Source of the DNA: Rhizobiales bacterium IMCC20636 | Lineage (GTDB): Bacteria; Pseudomonadota; Alphaproteobacteria; Rhizobiales; GCA-2746425 | Assembly: GCA_016865015.1 (NCBI GenBank) | Contig: CP018226.1 | Location: 3,627,001-3,691,000 of the forward strand | Direction of reading: 5' to 3' | Length of the DNA stretch: 64,000 nt | Part shown: positions 27,801-38,807 of the stretch, in pieces | Position numbering within the stretch: position 1 is the stretch's first letter | Layout of the letters: each line of letters begins with the position of its first letter | Translations under genes and position numbers: made by a program | Notes under the pieces: generated by a model | Seen by the model: only the letters and a program-made list of their open reading frames with translations | Database searches by the model: none | What the model was told of the DNA's origin: nothing

Positions 27801-27831
27801 TTGACCTTCCAGTTGCTGGAAGCCTTAAACC
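27801..27831 (+). promoter_or_regulatory. CueR/HmrR-type copper promoter
   Basis: A perfect 7-bp palindrome with a 3-base centre (27806-27822, CTTCCAG-TTG-CTGGAAG) sits between -35 TTGACC (27801-27806) and a -10-like TAAACC (27826-27831), giving a 19-base spacer. This is the classic MerR-type layout recognised by CueR/HmrR. It faces the copper ATPase 85 bases downstream. The rest of the 399-base gap (27517-27915) holds no gene that I can support. Confidence 0.88.
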
Positions 27832-27915
27832 AACCTCTAACTTATCAAATGTCAGGCGGATATCGGGCCTTTGCCCGGTCAGTGCCTCATATCTGCAGCA
27901 TCTTCAGGAACCCAA

Positions 27916-30264
27916 ATGGACCATCAACACAGCGCCAATTGCGAGCATGTATCACATGACATCGATACGGGGCACGACAGCGTCATCGATCCCGTTTGCG
28001 GCATGACGGTCAAGGTGAATGCGGGCAAGCCCAGCTTTACTTATGGCGATACCGAGTATCTGTTTTGTGGACAATCCTGCAAGAAACGGTTTGAGGCCGA
28101 TCCGGTGTTCTATCTTTCGGGCAATCACAAAAAGAAACAGAAAGCCGCTCCAAAGAACGCGCTTTATACCTGCCCCATGGATCCGGAAATCATTCAGGAA
28201 GGCCCAGGCACCTGCCCGGTTTGTGGCATGGCGCTGGAGCCCATGGATGGGGTATCCGAGGGTCCAAATTATGAATTGGAAGACTTCACCCGTCGTTTGT
28301 GGGTGAGTATTGGCGCGGCCATTCCTCTCCTGATCCTGACAATGGGCCCGATGATCGGCTTACCGATCCGCGAGTGGATTGGCGAAAAGACGGCCCTTTG
28401 GCTGGAACTGGCTCTGGCCACGCCGGTGGTTCTTTGGGTAGCAAAACCATTTTTCCAGCGTGGTTGGACTTCGGTACGCACCTGGAATTTGAACATGTGG
28501 ACTCTGATCATGCTGGGGGTCGGAGCGGCCTATCTTTACAGCCTGATCGCAGTTCTTGCGCCCGGTCTGTTTCCGGCAGAAGTCATGATCGGTGGACATC
28601 CGCCGGTCTATTTTGAAGCTGCCGTTGTCATCATCGCGCTGATTTTTGTTGGCCAGGTGCTGGAGTTGCGGGCGCGCGAACGCACAGGCGATGCCATCAA
28701 GGCGCTGCTGGATCTTGCCCCCAAAACGGCCCGACGCATCAACCCGGACGGCTCGGAGTATGACGCGCCACTGGAAAACATCCTGCCGGGAGATCATCTG
28801 CGTGTCACGCCCGGGGCGAGCATTCCTGTTGATGGGATTGTGCTGGAAGGCACCTCGGCAGTTGATGAAAGCATGATTTCCGGCGAACCACTGCCGGTTC
28901 AGAAAGTGGCGACTGACGTCGTCACCGGCGGCACGCTGAACAAGACCGGCAGTCTGATCATGGAAGCCAGCCATGTGGGGCAGGACACCATGCTGGCCAA
29001 GATTGTCCAGATGGTCGCTTCTGCGCAGCGCTCCCGGGCACCGATCCAGGGGCTGGCAGACAAGGTGTCTTCCTATTTTGTGCCTGCAGTTGTTGCCGCG
29101 GCGATTATTGCTTTTTTTGCATGGATCTTATGGGGACCAGAGCCGAGCTTCGTGTTCGCGATCATTTCTGCAGTCTCTGTTCTGATCATTGCCTGCCCAT
29201 GCGCTTTGGGACTGGCAACGCCCATGTCGATCATGACCGCAACCGGACGCGGTGCCGAAGCAGGCATTTTGATCAAAGAGGCCTCCGCGCTGGAGCGGTT
29301 GGCCAAGGTTGACACACTGATCGTTGACAAGACAGGGACGCTGACCAATGGAACACCTGAATTAACCGACGTGATACCACTGGCGGACCGGGATGAAGCG
29401 TCCTTGCTGGTCTTTGCAGCTTCCCTGGAAAAAGGCTCTGAACATCCACTGGCTGATGCAATAGTCGCCGGTGCAAACAACAGAAAACTTGCACTGACAC
29501 CGGCACAGGATTTCCAGTCTGTCACAGGCAAAGGTGTTTCCGGCACGATTGACGGGTTCAAAGTCACACTGGGCAACCGCGCGATGCTTCAGGAAACCGG
29601 CGCAGATGCAACACACGCAGAAGACCAGGCTGATGCGCTTCGCAAATCCGGCAAGACTGTCATGTATCTGCTTGTTGACGGTTCACTAGCTGGCTTGATC
29701 GCTGTTGCGGATACCATCAAGACAAGCACACCGGATGCCATCAAGGCTCTTCATGAGGCGGGCTTGACCATCATCATGGCGACTGGCGACAACGAAATCA
29801 CGGCTGCTTCTGTCGCGGCAGAACTTGGTATCGATGAAGTCAGGGCCGGTGTTCTGCCACAGGACAAGCAGCAATTGGTCAGGGATTTGCAGGCAAAAGG
29901 CCATGTCGTTGCGATGGCTGGTGATGGCGTCAATGACGCTCCAGCCCTTGCCGCAGCCGATGTTGGCATTGCCATGGGAACGGGCGCAGATGTCGCCGTG
30001 GAAAGTGCGGGCATTACGCTGCTGGGTGGTGATCTGGCCGGCATCGCCAAGGCCAGACGCCTTGCGGTGTCAACCATTGGCAATATCAAGCAGAATCTGT
30101 TTTTCGCATTTGCCTATAACAGTCTCGGCGTGCCGCTGGCCGCTGGCGTCTTGTATCCGCTCACCGGCACGCTGCTGTCTCCGATGCTGGCTGCAGCCGC
30201 AATGAGTCTTTCTTCTGTTTCAGTCATATCCAATGCTTTGCGGTTACGCCGCCTTAAACTGTAA
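27916..30264 (+). CDS. copA: copper-exporting P1B-type ATPase with YHS and heavy-metal-binding N-terminus
   Basis: The 782-residue P-type ATPase has no HMA domain at the N-terminus. Instead there is a His/Cys-rich start, a YHS domain (DPVCGM at 25-30, FCGQSC at 50-55) and a heavy-metal-binding motif (YTCPMDP at 84-90, CPVCGM at 100-105). The core has the CPC metal site at 427-429, DKTGT with the phosphorylated Asp471, SEHPLADAIV, TGDNEITA and GDGVNDAPAL. Eight membrane helices and the C-terminal FAYNSLGVPLAAG and MSLSSVSVISNALRLRRL are normal. It exports Cu(I) (or Ag) to the periplasm. The ATG at 27916 follows AGGA. It is driven by the CueR-type promoter and followed by its regulator. Confidence 0.93.
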   Translation: MDHQHSANCEHVSHDIDTGHDSVIDPVCGMTVKVNAGKPSFTYGDTEYLFCGQSCKKRFEADPVFYLSGNHKKKQKAAPKNALYTCPMDPEIIQEGPGTCPVCGMALEPMDGVSEGPNYELEDFTRRLWVSIGAAIPLLILTMGPMIGLPIREWIGEKTALWLELALATPVVLWVAKPFFQRGWTSVRTWNLNMWTLIMLGVGAAYLYSLIAVLAPGLFPAEVMIGGHPPVYFEAAVVIIALIFVGQVLELRARERTGDAIKALLDLAPKTARRINPDGSEYDAPLENILPGDHLRVTPGASIPVDGIVLEGTSAVDESMISGEPLPVQKVATDVVTGGTLNKTGSLIMEASHVGQDTMLAKIVQMVASAQRSRAPIQGLADKVSSYFVPAVVAAAIIAFFAWILWGPEPSFVFAIISAVSVLIIACPCALGLATPMSIMTATGRGAEAGILIKEASALERLAKVDTLIVDKTGTLTNGTPELTDVIPLADRDEASLLVFAASLEKGSEHPLADAIVAGANNRKLALTPAQDFQSVTGKGVSGTIDGFKVTLGNRAMLQETGADATHAEDQADALRKSGKTVMYLLVDGSLAGLIAVADTIKTSTPDAIKALHEAGLTIIMATGDNEITAASVAAELGIDEVRAGVLPQDKQQLVRDLQAKGHVVAMAGDGVNDAPALAAADVGIAMGTGADVAVESAGITLLGGDLAGIAKARRLAVSTIGNIKQNLFFAFAYNSLGVPLAAGVLYPLTGTLLSPMLAAAAMSLSSVSVISNALRLRRLKL

Positions 30265-30306
30265 CGTCGCCACAGTGCGACCCCTCATCACAGGAGGCAT
30301 ACCAAA

Positions 30307-30702
30307 ATGAATATCGGACAGGCCTCGAAGGCATCGCAATTGCCGACAAAAACCATTCGTTACTATGAAGAGATCAAGCTGATCTCGCCGATGCGGGCCG
30401 AAAATGGCTATCGCACTTACTGCGAAACGGACATTCACCGTCTGCGTTTCCTGCAACGGGCCAGAGGTCTCGGGTTTTCGATTGATGAATGTCGCTTGCT
30501 GCTCTCTCTTTACGAGGATGAGAAACGCGCCAGTTCCGATGTCAAACAACTGGCGCTCGACAAGATCGGCGAAATCGATCGCAAATTGTCAGAACTGGAA
30601 TCGCTGAAAGCAACCCTGACGGCGCTCGCCAGAGATTGCCATGGCGACGACAAGCCAGCCTGTCCGATTATTGACGATCTGGCCGGGAGAACCAACCATT
30701 GA
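30307..30702 (+). CDS. hmrR: CueR/HmrR family copper-responsive regulator
   Basis: The 131-residue MerR-family protein has the winged helix MNIGQASKASQLPTKTIRYYEEIKLISP and a coiled-coil dimer helix. The Cu(I)/Ag(I)/Au(I) site is Cys111-X7-Cys119 (CHGDDKPAC), and a Ser is present at position 77, which marks monovalent-metal sensors. It activates the promoter at 27801-27831. A strong AGGAGG site precedes the ATG. Its stop overlaps the TTG start of the next cytochrome gene, coupling the regulator to the downstream periplasmic genes. Confidence 0.93.
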   Translation: MNIGQASKASQLPTKTIRYYEEIKLISPMRAENGYRTYCETDIHRLRFLQRARGLGFSIDECRLLLSLYEDEKRASSDVKQLALDKIGEIDRKLSELESLKATLTALARDCHGDDKPACPIIDDLAGRTNH

Positions 30703-31112
30703 CCTTGCGCAACATGGCACTGCTGGCTGGAGCAATAGTGATCGCTCTTGGAATTTGGCTGTTCACGTCAACGACTGCGCCGGAGGCCACGGGCGAGCCT
30801 ATGGTAGAGGTGACTGTGCCGAAATTGAACATTGTGGAAACAGCCGGGCAGTTGTTGTTTGACAGCAATTGTGCAACTTGCCACGGCAAGAATGCGGCTG
30901 GACAGGATGGCGTGGCACCGCCCCTCGTCCACCTGATTTATGAGCCCGGACACCATGCCGATATTTCCTTTCAAAGGGCGGCAAAACTTGGCGTGAGAGC
31001 GCATCATTGGCCCTTTGGGAACATGCCTCCTGTTGAAGGTATCGACGAAGCGAATGTCAGCAAGATCATCAGCTACGTTCGAGCACTTCAGCGCGCAAAC
31101 GGAATTAATTGA
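30699..31112 (+). CDS. membrane-anchored monohaem cytochrome c
   Basis: The 137-residue protein has an N-terminal membrane segment (residues 6-24), a short linker and a class I cytochrome c domain. The haem motif is CATCH at 58-62 and the likely axial ligand is Met109 (FGNMPP). It would sit on the periplasmic face of the inner membrane. Translation probably starts at a TTG (30699) overlapping the hmrR stop, with GGGAG upstream; an ATG at 30714 is the alternative and would shorten the cytoplasmic tail only. The C-terminal VSKIISYVRALQ helix is typical. Confidence 0.85.
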   Translation: MTLRNMALLAGAIVIALGIWLFTSTTAPEATGEPMVEVTVPKLNIVETAGQLLFDSNCATCHGKNAAGQDGVAPPLVHLIYEPGHHADISFQRAAKLGVRAHHWPFGNMPPVEGIDEANVSKIISYVRALQRANGIN

Positions 31113-31113
31113 C

Positions 31114-31455
31114 ATGCGTTTGCTGTTGCTTCTGATCTCCAGCTTTTCTCTGGTTCTGGCAGGAGCAATGTTTTCGCATCAGGATGCCTTTGCCCTTGGG
31201 GACCACCAGCATGGGCAGGTTCTGATTTTGGATGACGTGGATGATCATGACCATGTCACCCTGCCTCAGAGTTTGCAAAATGCCGACACAGCCCAACTGC
31301 ATTGTGGCTCGAACATATTGGCACTTGTGAATTGTATGGAATGCCACTTCCGTATCACCGACAATGATTTGCCGTTCCGCCAAAAGTCTTTCGAAAACGG
31401 GGTTTGGGCAAAACTCGATCCTCCGCCTCCACGGAGAGTTCCAGAAGCGAGATAG
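31114..31455 (+). CDS. small secreted His-rich protein with a CXXCH motif, unknown function
   Basis: The 113-residue product has a signal peptide (residues 1-27, cleavage near AFA-L). The mature part begins with a His/Asp-rich stretch (H31, H33, H45, H47), then Cys64 and a CMECH motif at 74-78. No Met follows the motif, so an axial ligand for a normal c-type haem is not obvious. The motif may bind haem, or together with Cys64 and the His residues bind copper. The C-terminus is Pro/Arg-rich. The ATG at 31114 lies 1 base after the preceding stop. I recognise no family. Confidence 0.7.
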   Translation: MRLLLLLISSFSLVLAGAMFSHQDAFALGDHQHGQVLILDDVDDHDHVTLPQSLQNADTAQLHCGSNILALVNCMECHFRITDNDLPFRQKSFENGVWAKLDPPPPRRVPEAR

Positions 31456-31504
31456 ATAAACGGCCCTATCCGGCCATCGTTTTGGAACAATGAGGACTGA
31501 AAAC

Positions 31505-32116
31505 ATGACACCGAAAATTATCACATCGGCAATTGCTGCCGCCTTGCTTGCATCAGCGGCAGCTTACGCACATAGCGGCGCAACCGGCGTCGTCAAGCAA
31601 CGCATGGATGCAATGGGCAAACTGGGAGATGTGACAAAATTTCTGACTGAAATGATGCGGGGAGACGTCAGCTACAACGCGGAGCTTGTGCGTCAGAATG
31701 CAGCACAAATTCGTCAGCATGCCGGACCGAGCATTACGAAGCTTTTCCCGAAGGACAGCCTGATGAAACCCTCTGAGGCGCGCCCCGTGATCTGGTCTGA
31801 TTGGGAAGAGTTTGAAATCCTGGCCATGCGGCTGGAGGCTTTGGCGATTGGTCTTGAAGCATCCGCGGAGAATGGACTTATGAGTTCCGGCACTGCGCCC
31901 GCATCTGGCATGATGGGTACCGGCGGCAGCACTAACGCAATGATGGGTTCGGGTGGCAATGCTGGGGGAATGATGTCCTCAGGCGGCATGATGGCCGGCC
32001 AGAACACCCTGCCCGTTGCTGCTGACCTGGCTTCAATGCCTGCCGATGGCGTCTTTAACATGCTGACGCAGACCTGCGCATCCTGCCACACGAAATTTCG
32101 TTCCGAGAAGAACTGA
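31505..32116 (+). CDS. cytochrome c'-like protein with Met-rich insert
   Basis: The 203-residue periplasmic protein has a signal peptide (to about AYA-HSG, residue 22), a four-helix cytochrome c' body (VVKQRMDAMGKLGDVTKFLTEM) and a C-terminal haem motif CASCH at 191-195. Between helices 3 and 4, residues 126-163 form a Gly/Ser/Met insert with Met-Met pairs at 136, 146, 156 and 162. Such Met clusters bind Cu(I) in CopA, CueO and related proteins, so copper binding is inferred. Typical cytochromes c' are about 150 residues, so the insert explains the extra length. The ATG at 31505 follows GAGGA. Confidence 0.85.
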   Translation: MTPKIITSAIAAALLASAAAYAHSGATGVVKQRMDAMGKLGDVTKFLTEMMRGDVSYNAELVRQNAAQIRQHAGPSITKLFPKDSLMKPSEARPVIWSDWEEFEILAMRLEALAIGLEASAENGLMSSGTAPASGMMGTGGSTNAMMGSGGNAGGMMSSGGMMAGQNTLPVAADLASMPADGVFNMLTQTCASCHTKFRSEKN

Positions 32117-32119
32117 CGG

Positions 32120-33007
32120 ATGCGAAAACTAGTCGTATTGCTGTTGGTCGCCCTGGTGTTAACCGGGGCGACAATAGCGGCTTTGACTTTTTGGCCGATC
32201 GGCAAAGCACGGGATCTGACCGGACTGACCGGCAATGCGGATCGGGGTGCCTATCTTGCACGCATGTCCGGATGCATTGCCTGCCATACCGATTCTGAAA
32301 ATGGTGGCGCACCGCTGGCAGGCGGTGTTTCGCTGGCGACGGATTTTGGGACCTTTTATTCTCCAAATCTGACAACAGACACATCCCACGGCATCGGCAG
32401 CTGGACGGTTCAATCCTTCGCAAAAGCCGTCCGACAAGGCGTATCTCCGGAAGGGGAGCCATACTACCCAGCCTTTCCCTATCCGTTCTATGCAAAGTTC
32501 AGCGATCAGGATGTCGCTGATCTATGGGCTGCCTTTCAAACTGTTCCGCCCGTTGCTTTGCCCTCGACGGATCAAAATGTCGTCTTTCCGTTCAATTTCC
32601 GCAACGGTCTGAAATTGTGGCAGGCGGCGTTCCTGAAGCGATCCGGATTCCAGCCGGTTGAAGCACAAAGTGATGCGTGGAACCGGGGGAAGTTCATTGT
32701 CGAAGGACCTGCACATTGTGGCGCATGCCACACACCTCGCAATACGTTAGGGGCACGACAGGCTGAACTCAGATTGCACGGCGCGGACAAGTTGCCGGGT
32801 GGCGGAAAATCTCCGCCGATCACCACCATTGCACTGGTGGAGAATGGCTGGACCGAAAACACACTCGCTTATGCCTTGCGCACAGGTGTGCTGCCAGATG
32901 GGGATACATTCGGCGGATCAATGGGCGAGGTGGTGCGCGATGGAACAGCTTTTCTGGCACAGGATGACCTGAATGCCATTGCCACTTTTCTGATGAACCA
33001 GGAGTAG
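32120..33007 (+). CDS. dihaem cytochrome c, membrane-anchored
   Basis: The 295-residue protein has an uncleaved-looking N-terminal hydrophobic segment (residues 4-24) and two cytochrome c domains with haem motifs CIACH (52-56) and CGACH (200-204). The layout resembles the cytochrome subunit of alcohol/aldehyde dehydrogenases and other inner-membrane dihaem c proteins (YPAFPYPFYAKFSDQDVADLWAAFQTVP). It begins 3 bases after the cytochrome c' stop and ends 4 bases before the multicopper oxidase, so the three are cotranscribed. It may pass electrons from or to that oxidase. Confidence 0.88.
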   Translation: MRKLVVLLLVALVLTGATIAALTFWPIGKARDLTGLTGNADRGAYLARMSGCIACHTDSENGGAPLAGGVSLATDFGTFYSPNLTTDTSHGIGSWTVQSFAKAVRQGVSPEGEPYYPAFPYPFYAKFSDQDVADLWAAFQTVPPVALPSTDQNVVFPFNFRNGLKLWQAAFLKRSGFQPVEAQSDAWNRGKFIVEGPAHCGACHTPRNTLGARQAELRLHGADKLPGGGKSPPITTIALVENGWTENTLAYALRTGVLPDGDTFGGSMGEVVRDGTAFLAQDDLNAIATFLMNQE

Positions 33008-33011
33008 AAAC

Positions 33012-34418
33012 ATGTCGATTAACAGACGATCTCTTCTCAAATCCGGCGCAGGTGGTGCTGCCTTTGCCCTGCTGCCTGCAAATTTCAGGGCCGCATTGGC
33101 ATCTGATGGCTTTCTTGAAATAGTTGCCGGTCCTTCACAGCAAAAACTCTATTCAGGCAATGCACCACAATCCGATCTGTGGAGCTACAACGGCTCCACG
33201 CCCGGACCAGAAATCAGAGTCAAACGCGGGGAACGGGTCAAAGTCAGGCTTATCAACAAGCTTGAAGAAGCGACATCTATCCATTGGCATGGAATCCGTA
33301 TTGCCAACGACATGGATGGGGTTTCCGGCCTGACACAGAAGGCCGTGGAGCCCGGTGCCAGCTTTGAATATGATTTCATCGTGCCGGATGCCGGGACCTA
33401 TTGGTACCACGCTCATAACAAGAGCTGGAATCAGGTTGCGCGGGGGCTTTACGGCGCCCTCATCGTGGAAGGCGATGCACCTGATTTTGACACTGAGCAT
33501 GACCGGACTTTGATCCTGGATGACTGGCGGCTGGACCAGACCGGCAAACTGGACACAGCCAGCCTTGGTTCATTGATGGATTGGAGCCATGGCGGTCGTC
33601 TTGGCAATTGGCTGACCGTGAACGGCGAGAGTCGGCCAAATTACTCACTGAACGCAAACGAAGCCTACAGGTTTCGACTGATCAACACATCCAACGCCCG
33701 CGTGCTCGAATTGGATATTGAACAATTTGGTGCAAAAGTTCTGGGATTTGACGGGCAAATCCTTAAAGCCCCAACAGATTTGCCTTATCAGCCATTGTTG
33801 CTTGGCCCAGCACAAAGGGTGGATTTGTTAGTGATTCCCAACGCAGCGGTTTCAATGAGTCTCGACGAAATTTCGGGTGGTGAAGCGTTCTCTCTTGCCA
33901 GTTTCGAGGTGATCGGGAAGCCAGATAGCAAGCCTGGCTTGCCAGCGTTGATTTTGAACAATCTGCCGGAACCAGACCGTGATAATGCCCGCACTTTCAA
34001 GCTGGACATGACTGGCGGCGCTATGGGTCGAATGGGCGATATCGTCTATAATGGCAAAAAGCTGGACGGCTTGGATTTCAGGGACACCGGGCAAGTCTGG
34101 GCCTTTAACGGTATTGCCAATCTGGCCGACACGCCGTTCTTTTCTGTCAGACGGCATGAAACCGTGTTTCTGGATACTGTCAACAACACAGCATTTCTCC
34201 ATGCCATGCATCTCCACGGACATCATTTTCGCATATTGGAGCGCAGCGGAAGCGATGTTGATGAAGGCCAGCCATGGCGCGATACATTTCTGATTGGCCC
34301 GGCCCAAACCACACAAATTGCGTTTGTCGCTGACAATGTCGGCAAATGGCTTTTGCACTGCCATATGCTGGAACATGCTGCAGCTGGAATGAACACATGG
34401 TTTGAAGTCACCGATTGA
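33012..34418 (+). CDS. multicopper oxidase (laccase/CueO-like), Tat-exported
   Basis: The 468-residue three-cupredoxin oxidase has a twin-arginine signal (NRRSLLKSG, residues 4-12). All four copper-binding motifs are intact: HWHG (91-94), HAHN (133-136), HLHGHHF (400-406) and HCHMLEHAAAGM (449-460). Cys450 and Met460 complete the type 1 site. No Met-rich helix is present in this protein, unlike CueO; the Met-rich segment sits in the neighbouring cytochrome c' instead. Likely role: oxidation of periplasmic Cu(I) to the less toxic Cu(II). Confidence 0.93.
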   Translation: MSINRRSLLKSGAGGAAFALLPANFRAALASDGFLEIVAGPSQQKLYSGNAPQSDLWSYNGSTPGPEIRVKRGERVKVRLINKLEEATSIHWHGIRIANDMDGVSGLTQKAVEPGASFEYDFIVPDAGTYWYHAHNKSWNQVARGLYGALIVEGDAPDFDTEHDRTLILDDWRLDQTGKLDTASLGSLMDWSHGGRLGNWLTVNGESRPNYSLNANEAYRFRLINTSNARVLELDIEQFGAKVLGFDGQILKAPTDLPYQPLLLGPAQRVDLLVIPNAAVSMSLDEISGGEAFSLASFEVIGKPDSKPGLPALILNNLPEPDRDNARTFKLDMTGGAMGRMGDIVYNGKKLDGLDFRDTGQVWAFNGIANLADTPFFSVRRHETVFLDTVNNTAFLHAMHLHGHHFRILERSGSDVDEGQPWRDTFLIGPAQTTQIAFVADNVGKWLLHCHMLEHAAAGMNTWFEVTD

Positions 34419-34624
34419 CTTCACGGCAAGGTGAACAATTCTGTCTGGATTTCAATGCCAATTGTGAGTATGGAAAAATAACGAGAAAATTGATCTGTCT
34501 TCTGCTGTTGCTGTTATTCAACGCTATCCATGGATTGACTGGCGTTCATCGCGCATTCGCAATCACCGTATCTGAATGTCAGCAGGGTTCTGTGTTGGCC
34601 AATGACCGGGTTGTATCTGCATGA
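34415..34624 (+). CDS. possible small exported protein
   Basis: The frame overlaps the multicopper oxidase stop and could encode 69 residues. Its middle looks like a signal peptide (KITRKLICLLLLLLFNAIHG, ending near AFA), leaving a mature part of only about 20 residues with one Cys. No convincing ribosome site or ATG starts the signal-like part. It may be a real small copper-island protein, or the decayed start of a longer one. The 266-base gap 34419-34684 holds nothing else recognisable. Confidence 0.25.
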   Translation: MTSRQGEQFCLDFNANCEYGKITRKLICLLLLLLFNAIHGLTGVHRAFAITVSECQQGSVLANDRVVSA

Positions 34625-34684
34625 TGAGTGTACATGCGGAAGATTTTATGAACCCGCCCGATTTGGCGCAAAGGTGATTGACAT

Positions 34685-35371
34685 ATGAGTTTTAATAAAT
34701 TTGCAGAGCACAGACCTTCACGGCGTGCCTTTGTGCTGGGAAGTGCCAGTATTCTGGGTCTCTCTCTGGCCGGCTGCACAACAGCGTCCAACGACAGTGC
34801 AAGCTCTGCTGACACTGTATCTGACAGCTACAAGTCGATGTATGGTCCGCTGCCCAATGAAAAATTCCCGATTCCCGGCGTCGATCTGGAGAAAGTGCCT
34901 TCACAGTTCAGACGCCGCAGCGTGACTTATCGCACCAATGAAAAGCCGGGAACGATCATCGTCGACACCTCTGCACACTACCTCTATCTGGTCGAGCCAG
35001 GTGGCAAGGCCATGCGCTATGGTGTTGGTCTTGGCCGTGCAGGGTTTGAATGGTCCGGCCGAGCCAGAGTTGCCTGGAAGCGGCCATGGCCAACCTGGAC
35101 GCCGCCCGATGAGATGATTGCCAGGCGTCCGGATTTGCGCAAATACAGCGCCGATAATGGCGGAATGCAGCCCGGGCTTGCCAATCCGCTCGGCGCGCGT
35201 GCGCTTTACATTTTTGAAGGCAACAAGGACACCTTGTACCGCATCCATGGAACACCGGAATACTGGACAATCGGCAAATCGGTTTCCAGTGGTTGCGTGC
35301 GCATGATCAATCAGGATGTGATTGATCTGTACAAACGCGTGCGCTCCAATGCAGAGATCGTTGTGGTGTAA
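34685..35371 (+). CDS. L,D-transpeptidase (YkuD family) lipoprotein
   Basis: The 228-residue protein starts with a basic segment, RRAFVLGSAS and a lipobox LAGC (Cys near 36), so it is an exported lipoprotein, perhaps through Tat. The YkuD domain has TIIVDTSAHYLYLVEPGGKAMRYGVGLGRAG and the catalytic HGTPEYWTIGKSVSSGCVRM with Cys204. It makes 3-3 peptidoglycan cross-links or attaches proteins to peptidoglycan. Copper is known to inhibit this enzyme class through the catalytic Cys, which gives a reason for its place in a copper island. AAGG precedes the ATG. Confidence 0.9.
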   Translation: MSFNKFAEHRPSRRAFVLGSASILGLSLAGCTTASNDSASSADTVSDSYKSMYGPLPNEKFPIPGVDLEKVPSQFRRRSVTYRTNEKPGTIIVDTSAHYLYLVEPGGKAMRYGVGLGRAGFEWSGRARVAWKRPWPTWTPPDEMIARRPDLRKYSADNGGMQPGLANPLGARALYIFEGNKDTLYRIHGTPEYWTIGKSVSSGCVRMINQDVIDLYKRVRSNAEIVVV

Positions 35372-35373
35372 CC

Positions 35374-35880
35374 ATGCCGGTGCCTAAAACCGGATTAATG
35401 GTTTTCTGGTCTACATTGCTGGTTTTGGGAGGTGGCGCATTTATGTTTGCCTCCCAAAACCTTTTTTTTGGAACTGAAACACCGACTGGGCTTCTCAACC
35501 CCGCAGATTCGAACAAGGTTCAAATTGGCAGCAAGGTCTATTCTTCCAATTGCGCATCCTGCCATGGCGAAAATCTGGAAGGCCAACCGAATTGGCGCAG
35601 TCCGGGGGAAGACGGGCTCCTGCCCGCGCCGCCCCATGATGAAACAGGACACACCTGGCATCATACCGACGATGTCCTGTTTGGAATCACCAAATATGGC
35701 CTCGCCGAATTTTCAGGACTTGAAGGCTACGCAAGCGCCATGCCGATCTACAAGGATGTCCTGAGCGATGAGGACATAAAAGCGGTATTATCCTTCATCA
35801 AATCTCGCTGGCCGGCCGAAATTCAGGCCCGGCATACCGAGATGAATGAGAAAGCCACGCAAAACAAATCCGCCGAGTAG
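35374..35880 (+). CDS. membrane-anchored monohaem cytochrome c
   Basis: The 168-residue protein has one N-terminal membrane helix (residues 8-30) and a cytochrome c domain with CASCH at 60-64. A possible axial Met lies in ASAMPIYKDVLSDEDIKAVLSFIKSRWP. The acidic/His stretch HDETGHTWHHTDD precedes it. It starts 2 bases after the transpeptidase stop and ends the copper island. Proteins of this form often accompany copper-resistance multicopper oxidases. Confidence 0.88.
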   Translation: MPVPKTGLMVFWSTLLVLGGGAFMFASQNLFFGTETPTGLLNPADSNKVQIGSKVYSSNCASCHGENLEGQPNWRSPGEDGLLPAPPHDETGHTWHHTDDVLFGITKYGLAEFSGLEGYASAMPIYKDVLSDEDIKAVLSFIKSRWPAEIQARHTEMNEKATQNKSAE

Positions 35881-35917: not shown

Positions 35918-36958
35918 CTATCTGTCGACTTCCGCACGCGGATCCAGCAAGGCGGTCAGAATATTTTCCTGTGTGATTTCACCGACAATCACACCGTCCT
36001 TTTCAACACCGACAGCATCGCCACCGGTTTTCAGCAATTCCATGACGTTCTGAATGGCCTCCTGCCCGGTGACCGTCACCGTCGGTGTCTTGTCGGCGAC
36101 AGGATGCATGATGTGTTCGGCACACAGGACATTCAGCGGGTTCATATGCGCTACGAAATCAGCCACATAATCATCGGCTGGGGCGGAAAAGATTTCCTGT
36201 GGTGTACCGCATTGAATAATCCGTCCACCTTCCATGATGGCAATGCGGTCGCCGATCTTGAAAGCTTCATCCAGATCATGGCTGACAAATATGATGGTAC
36301 GCTTCAGGCTGCTCTGCAGGTCCAGCAATTCATCCTGAAGACGGGTGCGGATCAGTGGATCAAGCGCTGAAAAGGGTTCATCCATCAGCAAAATCGGGGC
36401 CTCAGTGACAAAGGCCCGGGCCAGACCAACGCGTTGCTGCATACCGCCGGACAATTCGCCAACACGGTGATCACCCCAGTCGGCCAGGCCAACAAGTTTC
36501 AGCTGTTCATCGACCCGGCGGTTCCGCTCGTCCAGACCGACACCGCCCAGTTCCAGACCAAGCCCGACATTCTCCCGCACACTGCGCCAGGGCAGCAGAC
36601 CAAATTGCTGAAACACCATGGCAACACGCGTCAGCCGCATCTTTCGCAGCGTTGCCTTGTCAGCCGATGTGATGTCGACCATGTTGTCGCCATTGTTGAC
36701 ACGGACAGACCCGCGCACCACCGGATTGAGCCCATTGACCGCCCGCAACAAGGTGGATTTCCCGGAACCGGACAGACCCATCAGAACCAGAATTTCACCA
36801 GCCTTCACATCAAGTGAGCAATCATGCACGCCCAGCACCTGATTGGTGGCGTCCTGAACTTCGGCTCGAGTCTTGCCCTCATCCATCAGTGGCAGAGCGC
36901 TTTTCGGGTCTTTCCCGAACACAATGGAGACGGCATCAAATTCAACAGCGTTATTCAT
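35918..36958 (-). CDS. choV: choline ABC transporter ATPase ChoV
   Basis: The 346-residue ATPase of the ProV/OpuAA group has Walker A MGLSGSGKSTLLRAVNGL, signature LSGGMQQRVGLARAF, Walker B ILLMDEPFSALDP and switch FVSHDLDEAFKIGD. A C-terminal CBS-like region follows (about residues 275-340, VTVTGQEAIQNVMELLKTGGDAVGVEKDGVIVGEIT). It energises choline or betaine uptake. It overlaps choW by ATGA and is the last gene of choX-choW-choV. It is convergent with the copper-island cytochrome, 37 bases apart. Confidence 0.92.
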   Translation of the reverse strand: MNNAVEFDAVSIVFGKDPKSALPLMDEGKTRAEVQDATNQVLGVHDCSLDVKAGEILVLMGLSGSGKSTLLRAVNGLNPVVRGSVRVNNGDNMVDITSADKATLRKMRLTRVAMVFQQFGLLPWRSVRENVGLGLELGGVGLDERNRRVDEQLKLVGLADWGDHRVGELSGGMQQRVGLARAFVTEAPILLMDEPFSALDPLIRTRLQDELLDLQSSLKRTIIFVSHDLDEAFKIGDRIAIMEGGRIIQCGTPQEIFSAPADDYVADFVAHMNPLNVLCAEHIMHPVADKTPTVTVTGQEAIQNVMELLKTGGDAVGVEKDGVIVGEITQENILTALLDPRAEVDR

Positions 36959-37791
36959 TTGCGGCGCTCCACGCGCAGCATGCGATCCAGCATGATTGCG
37001 ACAATAACAATGACAAATCCACTTTCGAAGCCGAGCGCAGCATTCACCTGATTAAGCGCGCGAACAACAGGCACGCCCAGCCCGTCAGCGCCAACAAGGG
37101 CGGCGATGACCACCATGGACAGCGACAGCATGATGGTCTGGTTGAGACCGGCCATGATCTGCGGCACAGCGTAGGGCAGTTCCACTTTGACCAGTTTCTG
37201 CCACCCTGTTGCGCCAAAAGCGTCGGCTGCCTCCAGTAAGGGTTGCGGCGTTGAAGACACGCCCAGATGAGTGAGACGAATGGGGGCCGGAACCACAAAA
37301 ATCACAGTAGCCATCAGACCGGGCACCATTCCGATGCCAAAAAACACAATCGCCGGGATGAGATACACAAAGGTCGGCAAGGTCTGCATCAGATCCAGAA
37401 CCGGGCGCATGACGCGGAACAGATTGGGCCGGTGCGCCGCTGCGATGCCAATGGGCACGCCAACCGCCATACACACGACACAGGCAGACAGTACGAGTGT
37501 CAGGCTTTCCGTGGTTTCTTCCCAATAATCCTGATTGAGAATGAAGAGGAAGCCCAGCAAAATGAGCAGACAGGTTTTCCAGGAGTGCTGGAGAAACCAG
37601 GTCAATCCAACAAAGAACGCGATGATAATCAGCGGGTGTGGGGTCTGCAGAACCCAGAGAATACCGTCGATGAGGGTTTCCAGACCCAGGGCCAGCCCGT
37701 CAAAGAACCACGCACCATTTGCCTGCAACCAGTCGAATACGGTTCGGGCGGTCGAGCCGACCGGAATCTTGTTTGCCGTCAGCCATTCCAT
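36955..37791 (-). CDS. choW: choline ABC transporter permease ChoW
   Basis: The 278-residue ProW/OpuAB-type permease has five to six membrane helices and the EAA loop LEAADAFGATGWQKLVKVELPYAVPQIMAGLNQTIMLSLSM near residues 185-225. LALGLETLIDGILWVLQTPHP at the N-terminus is typical of the choline/betaine permeases. It lies 83 bases after choX and overlaps choV by 4 bases. Confidence 0.92.
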   Translation of the reverse strand: MEWLTANKIPVGSTARTVFDWLQANGAWFFDGLALGLETLIDGILWVLQTPHPLIIIAFFVGLTWFLQHSWKTCLLILLGFLFILNQDYWEETTESLTLVLSACVVCMAVGVPIGIAAAHRPNLFRVMRPVLDLMQTLPTFVYLIPAIVFFGIGMVPGLMATVIFVVPAPIRLTHLGVSSTPQPLLEAADAFGATGWQKLVKVELPYAVPQIMAGLNQTIMLSLSMVVIAALVGADGLGVPVVRALNQVNAALGFESGFVIVIVAIMLDRMLRVERRK

Positions 37792-37829
37792 AGGTCTTTA
37801 AGCCCGCCAATGAGAATTATAGAGGAAAG

Positions 37830-37858
37830 CCTCCCGAACCACTGAAGGGAACGGGAGG
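37830..37858 (-). other. hairpin between choX and choW
   Basis: The inverted repeat 37830-37836 (CCTCCCG) with 37852-37858 lies just after the choX stop codon on the minus strand, without a clear T-run. It probably stabilises the binding-protein message or partly attenuates the operon. Confidence 0.5.
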
Positions 37859-37874
37859 TCATTTGTCGCAAGTC

Positions 37875-38807
37875 TTACAGGCCGAGTTCTGCTGCCACGG
37901 CAGACATGGCATCGCCACCATCCTGTGTGGTTACACCATCAAGCCAGCCGGACAACACATCCGGATTGGCTTTAAGCCATGTCGTTGCTGCATCTTCCGG
38001 GTCTTCATTGTCATTCAGGATAGCGCCCATGATTTCGTTTTCCATGGCGAGCGTGAATTTCAGATTGCCCAGCAATTTGCCAACATTCGGGCATTCAGTG
38101 ACATAGCCGGCGCGGGTGTTGGTATAGACTGTAGCACCGCCAAAATCCGGACCGAAATGGTCATCGCCACCGGACAGATAGGTCAGGTCGAAATTGGCAT
38201 TCATCGGATGCGGTTCCCAGCCCAGAAACACAACAGGCTCGTCGCGTTTATCAGCCCGGCCAACCTGTGCCAGCATGCCTTGTTCCGAAGATTCAGCAAC
38301 TTCAAAATCTTTCAGGCCAAAGGCATCGGCTTCGATCATTTCAATGATCAACCGGTTGCCATCATTGCCCGGCTCAATGCCGTAAATCTTGCCTTCCAAT
38401 GCATCCATGTGTGTCGCGATGCTGGCAAAGTCTGTAATACCAAGCTTTGCTCCGGCAGCATTGGTGGCCAGCGTGTATTTTGCGCCTTCGAGGTTTTCGC
38501 GCACCGTATCCACCGTCTTGGCTTCACGATAAGGGGCAATATCGGCTTCCATTGTTGGCATCCAGTTGCCGAGGAAAACATCAATATCGCCGCGCGCCAT
38601 GGACGTGTAGGTTACCGGCACGGACAGGACTTTCACATCTGTGTCATAGCCCAATGCGTCCAGCAAAACCGTTGTGGCGGCTGTTGTGGCGGTGATGTCT
38701 GTCCACCCCACATCGGAGAAGGTCACACTCTCACAATTTGCCTGGACGGCCGTGGAAAGCGCACCAAGCACCAATAGGCTGGTCGCTGTGGTTTTTAAAA
38801 ATCTCAT
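37875..38807 (-). CDS. choX: choline-binding periplasmic protein ChoX
   Basis: The 310-residue protein has a signal peptide (MRFLKTTATSLLVLGALSTAVQA-NCE). The OpuAC-type fold resembles ChoX of Sinorhizobium: SVTFSDVGWTDITATTAATTVLLDALGY, GDIDVFLGNWMPTMEADIAPY and FLGWEPHPMNANFDLTYLSGGDD, whose aromatic residues form the choline cage. It is divergent from betI with a palindromic operator between. Confidence 0.92.
   Translation of the reverse strand: MRFLKTTATSLLVLGALSTAVQANCESVTFSDVGWTDITATTAATTVLLDALGYDTDVKVLSVPVTYTSMARGDIDVFLGNWMPTMEADIAPYREAKTVDTVRENLEGAKYTLATNAAGAKLGITDFASIATHMDALEGKIYGIEPGNDGNRLIIEMIEADAFGLKDFEVAESSEQGMLAQVGRADKRDEPVVFLGWEPHPMNANFDLTYLSGGDDHFGPDFGGATVYTNTRAGYVTECPNVGKLLGNLKFTLAMENEIMGAILNDNEDPEDAATTWLKANPDVLSGWLDGVTTQDGGDAMSAVAAELGL

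What the first reader, a model, noticed from the sequence alone, without database searches (positions are those of the whole stretch)
27801..35880. Copper island built around c-type cytochromes plus a multicopper oxidase
Behind one CueR-type promoter are a Cu ATPase, HmrR, five exported proteins carrying six CXXCH motifs and a Tat multicopper oxidase. Classical cue/cop/cus loci use CopB, CopC/D, CusF or azurin partners, none of which appear here. The set suggests a periplasmic electron-transfer chain in which Cu(I) oxidation feeds, or is drained by, cytochromes c instead of O2 alone. This is the best candidate in the window for a poorly described system.
Basis: partly seen in the sequence, partly recalled or inferred. 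Interest (0 to 1): 0.75.

Follow-up and report, generated by a model that had tools for sequence, protein, structure and literature searches.

The report
Copper-sensing leader ahead of copper cytochromes
This is a copper-detoxification operon of an alphaproteobacterium in which one of the supposed cytochromes looks instead like a short copper-sensing leader peptide that probably controls translation of the real cytochromes and the copper oxidase behind it.

Summary
The copper operon at 27801-35880 is real and its gene order recurs in Hyphomicrobiales and Rhodobacterales, also on plasmids. (1) The second 'cytochrome' (31114-31455) is not one: its CXXCH is absent from all 14 homologues found by tblastn. 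It is a CutF-type leader: hydrophobic N-terminus, His-rich body, a Cys exactly 43 residues before the Arg of a C-terminal PPP(P)R in 32 of 33 leaders, ending 49 nt before the cytochrome c' gene. Its Pro codons favour CCT where that creates CCUCC, complementary to the next gene's Shine-Dalgarno (30 of 34 leaders, 12.4 expected). (2) The cytochrome c' carries a Met-rich loop, which co-occurs with the neighbouring dihaem gene (18 of 19 against 3 of 10 after collapsing at 60% identity). (3) An L,D-transpeptidase, an enzyme class that copper inhibits, belongs to the set. Cytochrome c'/dihaem and the oxidase also occur apart, so they are not obligate partners at one locus. Best reading: a CueR-switched operon with a second, translational copper switch, making periplasmic Cu(I)-handling proteins. 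New variant of a known kind; function inferred, not shown.

The parts
27801..27830 (+). CueR-type promoter, TTGACCTTCCAGTTGCTGGAAGCCTTAA; box 27804-27822
   Evidence: Only exact box in window and genome; box with at most one mismatch upstream of the ATPase in 16 of 31 relatives whose ATPase match is at least 60% identical, duplicates included
27916..30264 (+). Cu(I)-exporting P1B ATPase (YHS + HMBD metal-binding domains; no HMA domain reported)
   Evidence: Pfam and NCBIfam; the other two ATPase hits in the genome are 35-38% identical
30307..30702 (+). CueR (HmrR) Cu(I)-responsive MerR-family regulator
   Evidence: TIGR02044 161.9 bits, cut-off 147.4
30699..31112 (+). membrane-anchored monohaem cytochrome c (ATG at 30714 is an alternative start)
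   Evidence: PF00034; CXXCH in 47 of 47 sequences, window included
31114..31455 (+).
31420..31434 (+). PPPPR codons CCT CCG CCT CCA CGG, predicted stall motif and anti-Shine-Dalgarno
   Evidence: RNA fold; codon bias in relatives; pairing tests
31492..31496 (+). Shine-Dalgarno GAGGA of the cytochrome c' gene, predicted to pair with the Pro codons
   Evidence: sequence; RNA fold
31505..32116 (+). cytochrome c' (CXXCHxxFR at the C-terminus)
   Evidence: PF01322; AlphaFold model, mean pLDDT 77.8, helix blocks mostly 92-99; nearest PDB folds are cytochromes c'
31874..32014 (+). Met-rich (MMGxG) loop without confident structure between helix C and the haem helix, about residues 124-170
   Evidence: alignment A1; low pLDDT; association with dihaem
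32120..33007 (+). dihaem cytochrome c, homologous to the N-terminal part of fructose/aldehyde/alcohol dehydrogenase cytochrome subunits
   Evidence: PDB 7w2j_C E 5e-50, 8gy3_A 3e-49
33012..34418 (+). three-domain multicopper oxidase with a Tat-type N-terminus
   Evidence: Pfam; best PDB match 4f7k_A 'Laccase' E 1.6e-95; T1/T2/T3 ligand motifs HWHG, HAH, HLHGHH, HCHxxxH read from the sequence
34415..34624 (+). truncated remnant of a second CutF-type leader (its CxxxC and RPP end are lost)
   Evidence: 49-56% identity to the intact leaders at the same place in L098, L044, L100
34685..35371 (+). periplasmic L,D-transpeptidase (YkuD)
   Evidence: PF03734 E 3e-23; in 27 of 51 relatives
35374..35880 (+). 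membrane-anchored monohaem cytochrome c, starts 2 nt after the transpeptidase
   Evidence: PF00034; CXXCH in 39 of 41 sequences, window included

Best explanation
A copper-detoxification operon with two copper switches. Read from sequence: a CueR box and CueR gene with a Cu(I)-exporting ATPase and the genes behind it; inside the operon a CutF-type exported leader peptide precedes the block cytochrome c' - dihaem cytochrome - multicopper oxidase. Inferred for the leader, by analogy with R. capsulatus CutF: when periplasmic copper binds the emerging chain (Cys64 with nearby His), translation pauses at PPPPR; the paused ribosome covers the CCUCC in the Pro codons, frees the Shine-Dalgarno of the cytochrome c' gene and so raises translation of the block. 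Inferred for the block: Cu(I) is captured on the Met-rich loop of cytochrome c' and oxidised to Cu(II), the electron passing through the dihaem and the membrane-anchored monohaem cytochromes to a terminal oxidase, while the multicopper oxidase oxidises Cu(I) directly with O2. The L,D-transpeptidase probably keeps cell-wall cross-linking going under copper. The confidence given is for operon function plus leader identity; I put the cytochrome relay alone at about 0.35 to 0.4 and the exact anti-Shine-Dalgarno mechanism at about 0.4.
For: CueR box unique in the genome. Leader found in 34 of 46 distinct cytochrome c' loci, window included; of 33 read in full, Cys is exactly 43 residues before Arg in 32 and 42 in one, the most constant position outside the PPP(P)R itself. 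CruR/DUF2946 and CutF are reported to have 45 residues between metal motif and stall motif (passages of PMC9426467; PMC9973294). Pro-tract codons: CCT 46 of 133 against 529 of 3561 in neighbouring genes, p 3e-8; third Pro 21 of 34, p 7e-10; last Pro, where CCT cannot make CCUCC, 6 of 34; after collapsing leaders at 40% identity 12 of 20 at the third Pro against 20 of 167 in other Pro-Pro pairs, p 4e-6, and 3 of 20 at the last. Native tracts pair more strongly with the 20 nt before the cytochrome start than synonymous tracts: p 4e-6, n 32 with a valid start codon; p 8e-4, n 20 after collapsing at 40% (one search gave p 4e-7 with n 34, two of them with a wrong start). The second leader type repeats the pattern: CCT at first Pro 13 of 23, at second 0 of 23; 7 of 13 and 0 of 13 after collapsing at 40%, p 0.004. 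Met-rich loop with dihaem: 18 of 19 against 3 of 10, p 5e-4, one per 60% cluster. Ccm genes beside the module on three plasmids. Three hits to the haem-copper oxidase family PF00115 in the genome as possible sinks. Copper inhibits L,D-transpeptidases (passages of PMC11390936).
Against: The leader matches neither DUF2946 nor another Pfam family and lacks CutF's CXXXC. Whole-segment RNA folding is not unusually stable (z -1.1; 32 of 200 shuffles as good). Accessibility of the Shine-Dalgarno against synonymous tracts is borderline and depends on how the site is picked: p 0.059, window 0.62 unpaired; p 0.024 with n 32 and 0.011 with n 20, window 0.26, with a GGAGG-like pick. CCT is only weakly raised at another Pro that could also make CCUCC (8 of 34). 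12 of 46 cytochrome c' loci have no such leader. Oxidase and cytochrome c'/dihaem occur apart. Cytochrome midpoint potentials are unknown; electron flow from Cu(I) is not shown. The loci were collected by homology and are related, so counts are not fully independent; I formed the anti-Shine-Dalgarno idea on the window and tested it on relatives (window kept in the counts) and on a second leader type. The Met-rich cut-off was set after seeing the counts, which fall into 0-4 and 7-16 Met.
Confidence: 0.7

Rival explanations
1. One reading: the multicopper oxidase and the cytochromes form one obligate chain in which Cu(I) oxidation by the oxidase feeds or is drained by cytochromes c.
For: Dihaem and cytochrome c' stand at about the same distance before the oxidase in 25 of 51 close loci each.
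Against: Each half occurs without the other at its locus (L100; L142; L129 and L131-L134), and the genome of L100 has no cytochrome c' match at all (G003). The oxidase keeps all ligand motifs for its own O2 reduction.
Confidence: 0.25
2. The cytochromes do not handle copper; they are copper-induced replacement electron carriers that keep respiration running while copper blocks c-type cytochrome assembly, and the Met-rich loop is only a copper sponge.
For: Under copper, c-type cytochromes are lost from membranes of R. capsulatus lacking CutO or CutF (passages of PMC8456105); ccm genes travel with the module; dihaem resembles dehydrogenase electron-transfer subunits.
Against: The Met-rich loop associates with the dihaem, which a mere sponge would not predict.
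Confidence: 0.3
3. The leader is a stable periplasmic Cu chaperone (the first proposal made for CutF), not a nascent-chain switch.
For: His-rich body and conserved Cys.
Against: Exact Cys-to-Arg spacing with otherwise divergent sequence and codon-level constraint are not expected of a chaperone; for CutF itself later work favours translational control (passages).
Confidence: 0.15
4. The CCT bias reflects slow decoding for stalling rather than pairing with the Shine-Dalgarno.
For: Pro codons are the presumed stall site; the accessibility test is borderline (p 0.059, 0.024).
Against: CCT is not enriched at the last Pro of leader 1 (6 of 34) and absent at the second Pro of leader 2 (0 of 23); 18 DUF2946-type RxPP ends show no CCT bias (4 and 5 of 18; rough background, and a few of these are doubtful frames).
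Confidence: 0.3

Closest known systems
Rhodobacter capsulatus cutFOG (CutF leader, CutO oxidase, CutG)
   Same: Short exported leader with a metal-binding Cys motif and a C-terminal Pro-rich end directly upstream of periplasmic copper proteins; a Shine-Dalgarno that can be masked; multicopper oxidase downstream; DUF411 proteins, which I take to be CutG-like (recalled link), are annotated in three of the plasmid clusters.
   Different: Here the leader precedes cytochrome c' and dihaem genes, has HCG instead of CXXXC, lies inside a CueR operon behind copA-cueR, and the putative anti-Shine-Dalgarno lies in the Pro codons (where it lies in cutF I could not check); relatives carry a second leader before the transpeptidase.
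Bordetella pertussis CruR (DUF2946, RAPP)
   Same: Upstream ORF, Cys motif and C-terminal Pro motif at fixed spacing.
   Different: CruR acts through Rho termination and lowers expression with copper (passages); no DUF2946 match here; no CCT bias in 18 DUF2946-type RxPP ends.
E. coli cue system (CueR, CopA, CueO)
   Same: CueR box, Cu ATPase, periplasmic oxidase.
   Different: Adds four cytochromes, a leader and a transpeptidase; the ATPase has YHS/HMBD domains where E. coli CopA has HMA domains (recalled).
Laccase with solved structure 4f7k
   Same: Closest PDB sequence to the oxidase.
   Different: Its source and genomic role were not examined here.
Copper clusters on Roseobacter-group plasmids (D. 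shibae pDSHI03, Phaeobacter gallaeciensis pP11_b)
   Same: Cytochrome c' - dihaem - oxidase - cytochrome order with CueR and Cu ATPase (checked by tblastn; by annotation and size only).
   Different: ATPase-CueR at the other end; ccm genes and DsbA added.

Membership tests
CutF-like leader proteins | Shorter than 150 aa | tested here: met
   113 aa; 106-146 aa in the 33 leaders read in full
[quoted passage not shown]
   PPPP at residues 103-106 of 113
CutF-like leader proteins | N-terminal Sec signal peptide | tested here: inconclusive
   Hydrophobic N-terminus in all 33, but hydrophobicity was part of how starts were chosen; no SignalP available
CutF-like leader proteins | Downstream gene on same strand, intergenic space under 1000 nt | tested here: met
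   49 nt to the cytochrome c' gene
CutF-like leader proteins | CXXXC metal motif of CutF (iterative searches in PMC8456105 also admitted Cys variants) | tested here: not met
   Leader 1 has one Cys at the fixed place, mostly in HCG; leader 2 of relatives does have CxxxC. I therefore call it CutF-type, not CutF
CutF-like leader proteins | Stem-loop masking the downstream Shine-Dalgarno | tested here: inconclusive
   Predicted pairing in the window; better than synonymous by duplex energy, borderline by accessibility (p 0.059, 0.024)
CutF-like leader proteins | Copper-dependent control of the downstream gene | not testable with these tools
   needs reporter assays
DUF2946 (PF11162) | Match to the Pfam model | tested here: not met
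   no match in the window leader or in the five relatives' leaders scanned at E 10; none in the own genome at E 0.001
c-type cytochrome (ORF 31114-31455) | Conserved CXXCH | tested here: not met
   1 of 15 sequences, the window's own
Cytochrome c' | Four-helix bundle with C-terminal CXXCH | tested here: met
   PF01322; CXXCH in 36 of 36 sequences; model and PDB matches
Cytochrome c' | Five-coordinate high-spin haem | not testable with these tools
   Invariant Met34/Met37 in helix A could instead give a sixth ligand as in c556 (recalled)
CueO-type cuprous oxidase | Met-rich Cu(I)-binding insert in the oxidase | tested here: inconclusive
   None seen by eye in the sequence; the NCBIfam CueO equivalog is far below its cut-off (156.7 against 525); the Met-rich stretch lies in the cytochrome c' instead
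CueR regulon | CueR box at the operon promoter | tested here: met
CueR regulon | Copper induction | not testable with these tools
   needs RNA or reporter data

The most novel reading that the evidence does not exclude
A copper cytochrome/oxidase cassette controlled by a nascent-chain copper sensor in which the stall codons are themselves the anti-Shine-Dalgarno, so that the paused ribosome uncovers the next gene by sitting on the CCUCC; in many relatives two such leaders punctuate one cluster. What they control is a respiratory cuprous oxidase: a cytochrome c' with a Met-rich Cu(I) loop that hands Cu(I) electrons through a dihaem cytochrome to the respiratory chain, working with or without a multicopper oxidase.
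Probability: 0.3. Interest if true: 0.82.

Novelty: new variant of a known kind. Interest (0 to 1): 0.62.

Why it matters
It would extend copper sensing by nascent exported proteins from one studied oxidase gene to a widespread, often plasmid-borne cytochrome cassette, give a simple and testable physical mechanism (stall codons as anti-Shine-Dalgarno), and make the question of whether periplasmic Cu(I) can be oxidised through cytochromes directly testable with one protein, the Met-rich cytochrome c'. It also warns that a lone CXXCH is not a cytochrome.

Tried and rejected
Rejected: ORF 31114-31455 as a cytochrome. Rejected: DUF2946 membership by Pfam. Tried: whole-segment RNA folding of the leader end, not significant; Shine-Dalgarno accessibility against synonymous tracts, p 0.059 with one way of picking the site and 0.024 with another. 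Tried: DUF411 in the own genome, no hit, but the control genomes did not ring either, so absence is not shown. Promoter/terminator scan of the operon found 2 and 9 sites against 5.3 and 8.6 in shuffles. Literature: ten searches; judged by titles and opening lines, none listed a paper on a CutF-type leader before a cytochrome gene or on a Met-rich cytochrome c' in copper resistance, but no search was worded for both at once, and the supplementary neighbour lists of PMC9973294 were not available to me, so these leaders may be among its 5,334 listed proteins. A greedy ORF caller mis-called genes and was replaced by tblastn. The insert boundaries were uneven; one search repeats the count with a fixed 60-residue window. 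Considered and not pursued: Mn(II) or Fe(II) oxidation by the oxidase; the CueR box argues for copper.

Error found on checking: the cytochrome c' start that my script chose in L060 and L094 is not a start codon, so their intergenic distance of 0 and their pairing values are void, and row L060 of alignments A1 and A2 begins too far upstream; the leaders and codon counts are not affected. One search repeats the pairing tests without them.

Rows dropped: five duplicate loci (L099, L101, L103, L106, L107); L099, L101, L106, L107 and the near-duplicate L066; these and L103. One search kept all 51 cytochrome c' rows for its first table, and its box count (16 of 31) includes the duplicates L099, L101 and L107. 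One search used 67 of 80 distinct loci (51 plus 16), leaving out those with short flanks. One of the 34 leaders was not read in full. In one search I fetched nine cytochrome c' places that are not near an oxidase place; they are a choice, not all such places. Of nine (L129-L137) seven have the dihaem next to the cytochrome c', two (L135, L136) do not.

Full report
What is there. The operon reads, on the + strand: CueR-type promoter (box 27804-27822), Cu ATPase 27916-30264, cueR 30307-30702, monohaem cytochrome c 30699-31112, ORF 31114-31455, cytochrome c' 31505-32116, dihaem cytochrome 32120-33007, multicopper oxidase 33012-34418, a short remnant 34415-34624, L,D-transpeptidase 34685-35371, monohaem cytochrome 35374-35880. 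That it is one transcript is inferred from strand and spacing. The box is the only exact match to ACCTTCC-N7-GGAAG in the genome of 4.79 Mb; with up to one mismatch the genome has 18 places against 24 for the reversed control, so only the exact match means anything. The two other ATPase hits in the genome are 35-38% identical.

Conservation. After removing duplicates 80 loci were compared. Of the 51 with an oxidase at least 50% identical and enough flank, 25 have the dihaem at about the same distance upstream (0.8-1.1 kb) and 25 the cytochrome c' before it; nine have all seven partners on the same strand; six have none. Of 16 more distant loci with enough flank, four have cytochrome c' and dihaem in place and six have no partner. 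The block is on plasmids of Roseibium (checked) and Dinoroseobacter (checked) and, by annotation and gene size, of Phaeobacter gallaeciensis, Pseudosulfitobacter and Aliiroseovarius. In Dinoroseobacter, P. gallaeciensis and Aliiroseovarius, cytochrome-maturation genes (ccmF, dsbE, ccmH-type, ccmI; in the Aliiroseovarius stretch only the last two are in view) stand near it; in the stretches of P. inhibens, R. litoralis and Pseudosulfitobacter none is annotated. Phaeobacter inhibens, Hoeflea and Roseobacter litoralis plasmids carry the oxidase, transpeptidases and a cytochrome without the cytochrome c'/dihaem pair next to it; the P. inhibens plasmid has a cytochrome c' match some 28 kb away, and R. 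litoralis has CopC and CopD at that place.

Modularity. In the same genus the relative L100 lacks ORF 31114-31455, cytochrome c' and dihaem together, while ATPase, CueR, first cytochrome, oxidase, transpeptidase and last cytochrome are kept; its genome has no cytochrome c' match at E 1e-10 (G003). Conversely the cytochrome c' and dihaem stand without an oxidase in the stretch in L142, beside a Cu ATPase and a CusA-type pump, and in L129 and L131-L134 (L130 has a partial oxidase match). Of the six genomes behind L129-L134, five have an oxidase place elsewhere and one (G255, L131) has none listed at E 1e-80. In a reciprocal search, of the 19 best cytochrome c' places in 297 genomes of the order (126 bits or more), 13 lie within 10 kb of an oxidase place (my count from the two listings).

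The misread cytochrome. Tblastn found 14 homologues of ORF 31114-31455; none has CXXCH, all have HC and a C-terminal PPPPR. Searching each cytochrome c' locus for an upstream ORF ending in PPP(P)R found one in 34 of 46 distinct loci, window included. Thirty-three were read in full: 106-146 aa as started there, hydrophobic N-terminus, 4-17 His. Counting back from the Arg, position 43 is Cys in 32 of 33 and position 44 is His in 29, position 42 Gly in 28; outside this HCG motif the best position reaches 26. The window's Cys64 is this Cys; C74 and C77 of its CXXCH are not shared. This is the design of copper-sensing nascent-chain leaders. For CutF of R. capsulatus, passages of PMC9973294 describe an exported, rapidly degraded leader whose Cys motif and Pro-rich end are both needed for copper-dependent translation of cutO by opening a stem-loop over its Shine-Dalgarno; [quoted passage not shown] Passages of PMC12992588 report that CruR arrests translation in vitro; passages of PMC10987492 state that arrest of CruR and CutF had not been shown at that time.

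The codons. In the window the RNA fold pairs the Pro codons (CCUCC) with the Shine-Dalgarno GAGGA of the cytochrome c' gene. The fold as a whole is not unusual (z -1.1). Across 34 leaders CCT makes up 46 of 133 tract codons, against 529 of 3561 Pro codons in four neighbouring genes (p 3e-8). By position: first of four 11 of 31, second 8 of 34, third 21 of 34, last 6 of 34; at the last, CCT cannot form CCUCC. 30 of 34 tracts contain CCTCC, 12.4 expected. Collapsing leaders at 70, 50 and 40% identity leaves 17 of 29, 14 of 25 and 12 of 20 with CCT at the third Pro, against 20 of 167 Pro-Pro pairs elsewhere. Duplex energy between tract and the 20 nt before the start codon is better than for synonymous tracts: mean -6.1 against -4.7 kcal/mol, p 4e-6 for the 32 loci with a valid start codon, p 8e-4 for 20 after collapsing at 40% (one search had two loci with a wrong start). 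In the median locus a fifth of random synonymous tracts do as well. Accessibility of the site in a folded segment gives 0.17 against 0.22, p 0.059, or, with the site picked as the best GGAGG match and the two bad loci left out, 0.21 against 0.24, p 0.024, and 0.19 against 0.25, p 0.011 after collapsing; I count it as borderline. A second leader type, between oxidase and transpeptidase, was found in 23 of 83 loci examined, defined by Cys at 41 and 37 residues before the last PP, that is CxxxC as in CutF; there CCT is at the first Pro in 13 of 23 and at the second in 0 of 23, and in 10 of 16, 8 of 14 and 7 of 13 at the first after collapsing at 70, 50 and 40% (p 1e-4, 0.001, 0.004; 0 at the second throughout). 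DUF2946-type RxPP ends, readable in 18 of 30 loci fetched, show no CCT bias. In the window this second leader is only a remnant.

The cytochrome c'. It matches PF01322, models as a confident helix bundle with a stretch at about residues 124-170 that has no confident structure, and its nearest PDB folds are cytochromes c'. That stretch is Met-rich in most relatives. Met-rich stretches go with a dihaem gene next door: 38 of 40 against 3 of 11 over all 51 rows, 28 of 29 against 3 of 10 after collapsing at 80% identity, 18 of 19 against 3 of 10 at 60% (p 5e-4). The exceptions are L036 (Met-rich, no dihaem; L101 is the same locus) and L109, L134, L137 (dihaem, few Met). The dihaem is homologous to the N-terminal part of the cytochrome subunits of fructose, aldehyde and alcohol dehydrogenases, that is, to electron-transfer subunits; a paralogue of 43% identity lies elsewhere in the genome.

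How it probably works. Seen in sequence: operon layout, CueR box, leader design, codon constraint, Met-loop/dihaem association. Inferred: copper binding by the leader, stalling, unmasking of the Shine-Dalgarno, Cu(I) capture by the Met-rich loop, electron flow to the respiratory chain (three PF00115 hits in the genome), and the role of the transpeptidase. For the last, passages of PMC11390936 and PMC9302775 state that copper inhibits L,D-transpeptidases, so a copper-induced copy is plausible; the primary paper they cite (Peters 2018) was not read.

Verdict. Ordinary in its frame (a CueR copper operon), unusual in its contents.

Noticed in passing
window 34415-34624: Truncated remnant of a second CutF-type leader; same-genus relatives L098 and L044 have the intact leader and an extra L,D-transpeptidase copy at this place, so the window genome seems to have lost a stretch here.
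   Followed up: partly
L141 3410-7603; L144 1-4056; L146 1-1580: Plasmid copies of the cassette have cytochrome c maturation genes nearby (ccmF, dsbE, ccmH-type, ccmI as far as in view), as if the copper cassette brings its own haem-attachment machinery.
   Followed up: partly
L143 8721-11317: Roseobacter litoralis pRLO149_83 has CopC and CopD directly before the oxidase, where other clusters have cytochrome c' and dihaem.
   Followed up: no
L003, L143: A Rieske-type 'ubiquinol-cytochrome c reductase iron-sulfur subunit' gene is annotated some 7-8 kb upstream of the oxidase on two Roseobacteraceae plasmids.
   Followed up: no
G000:C1:3156274-3157137: A second dihaem homologue (43% identity) elsewhere in the window's genome; context not examined.
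   Followed up: no
window 35918-38807: Convergent ABC-transporter-like ORFs (346, 278 and 310 aa) directly downstream; ORFs of the same or similar sizes lie at the same place in the genus relatives L098, L044 and L100 (by size only, crude ORF caller), suggesting that the copper operon sits at a stable chromosomal site in this genus.
   Followed up: partly
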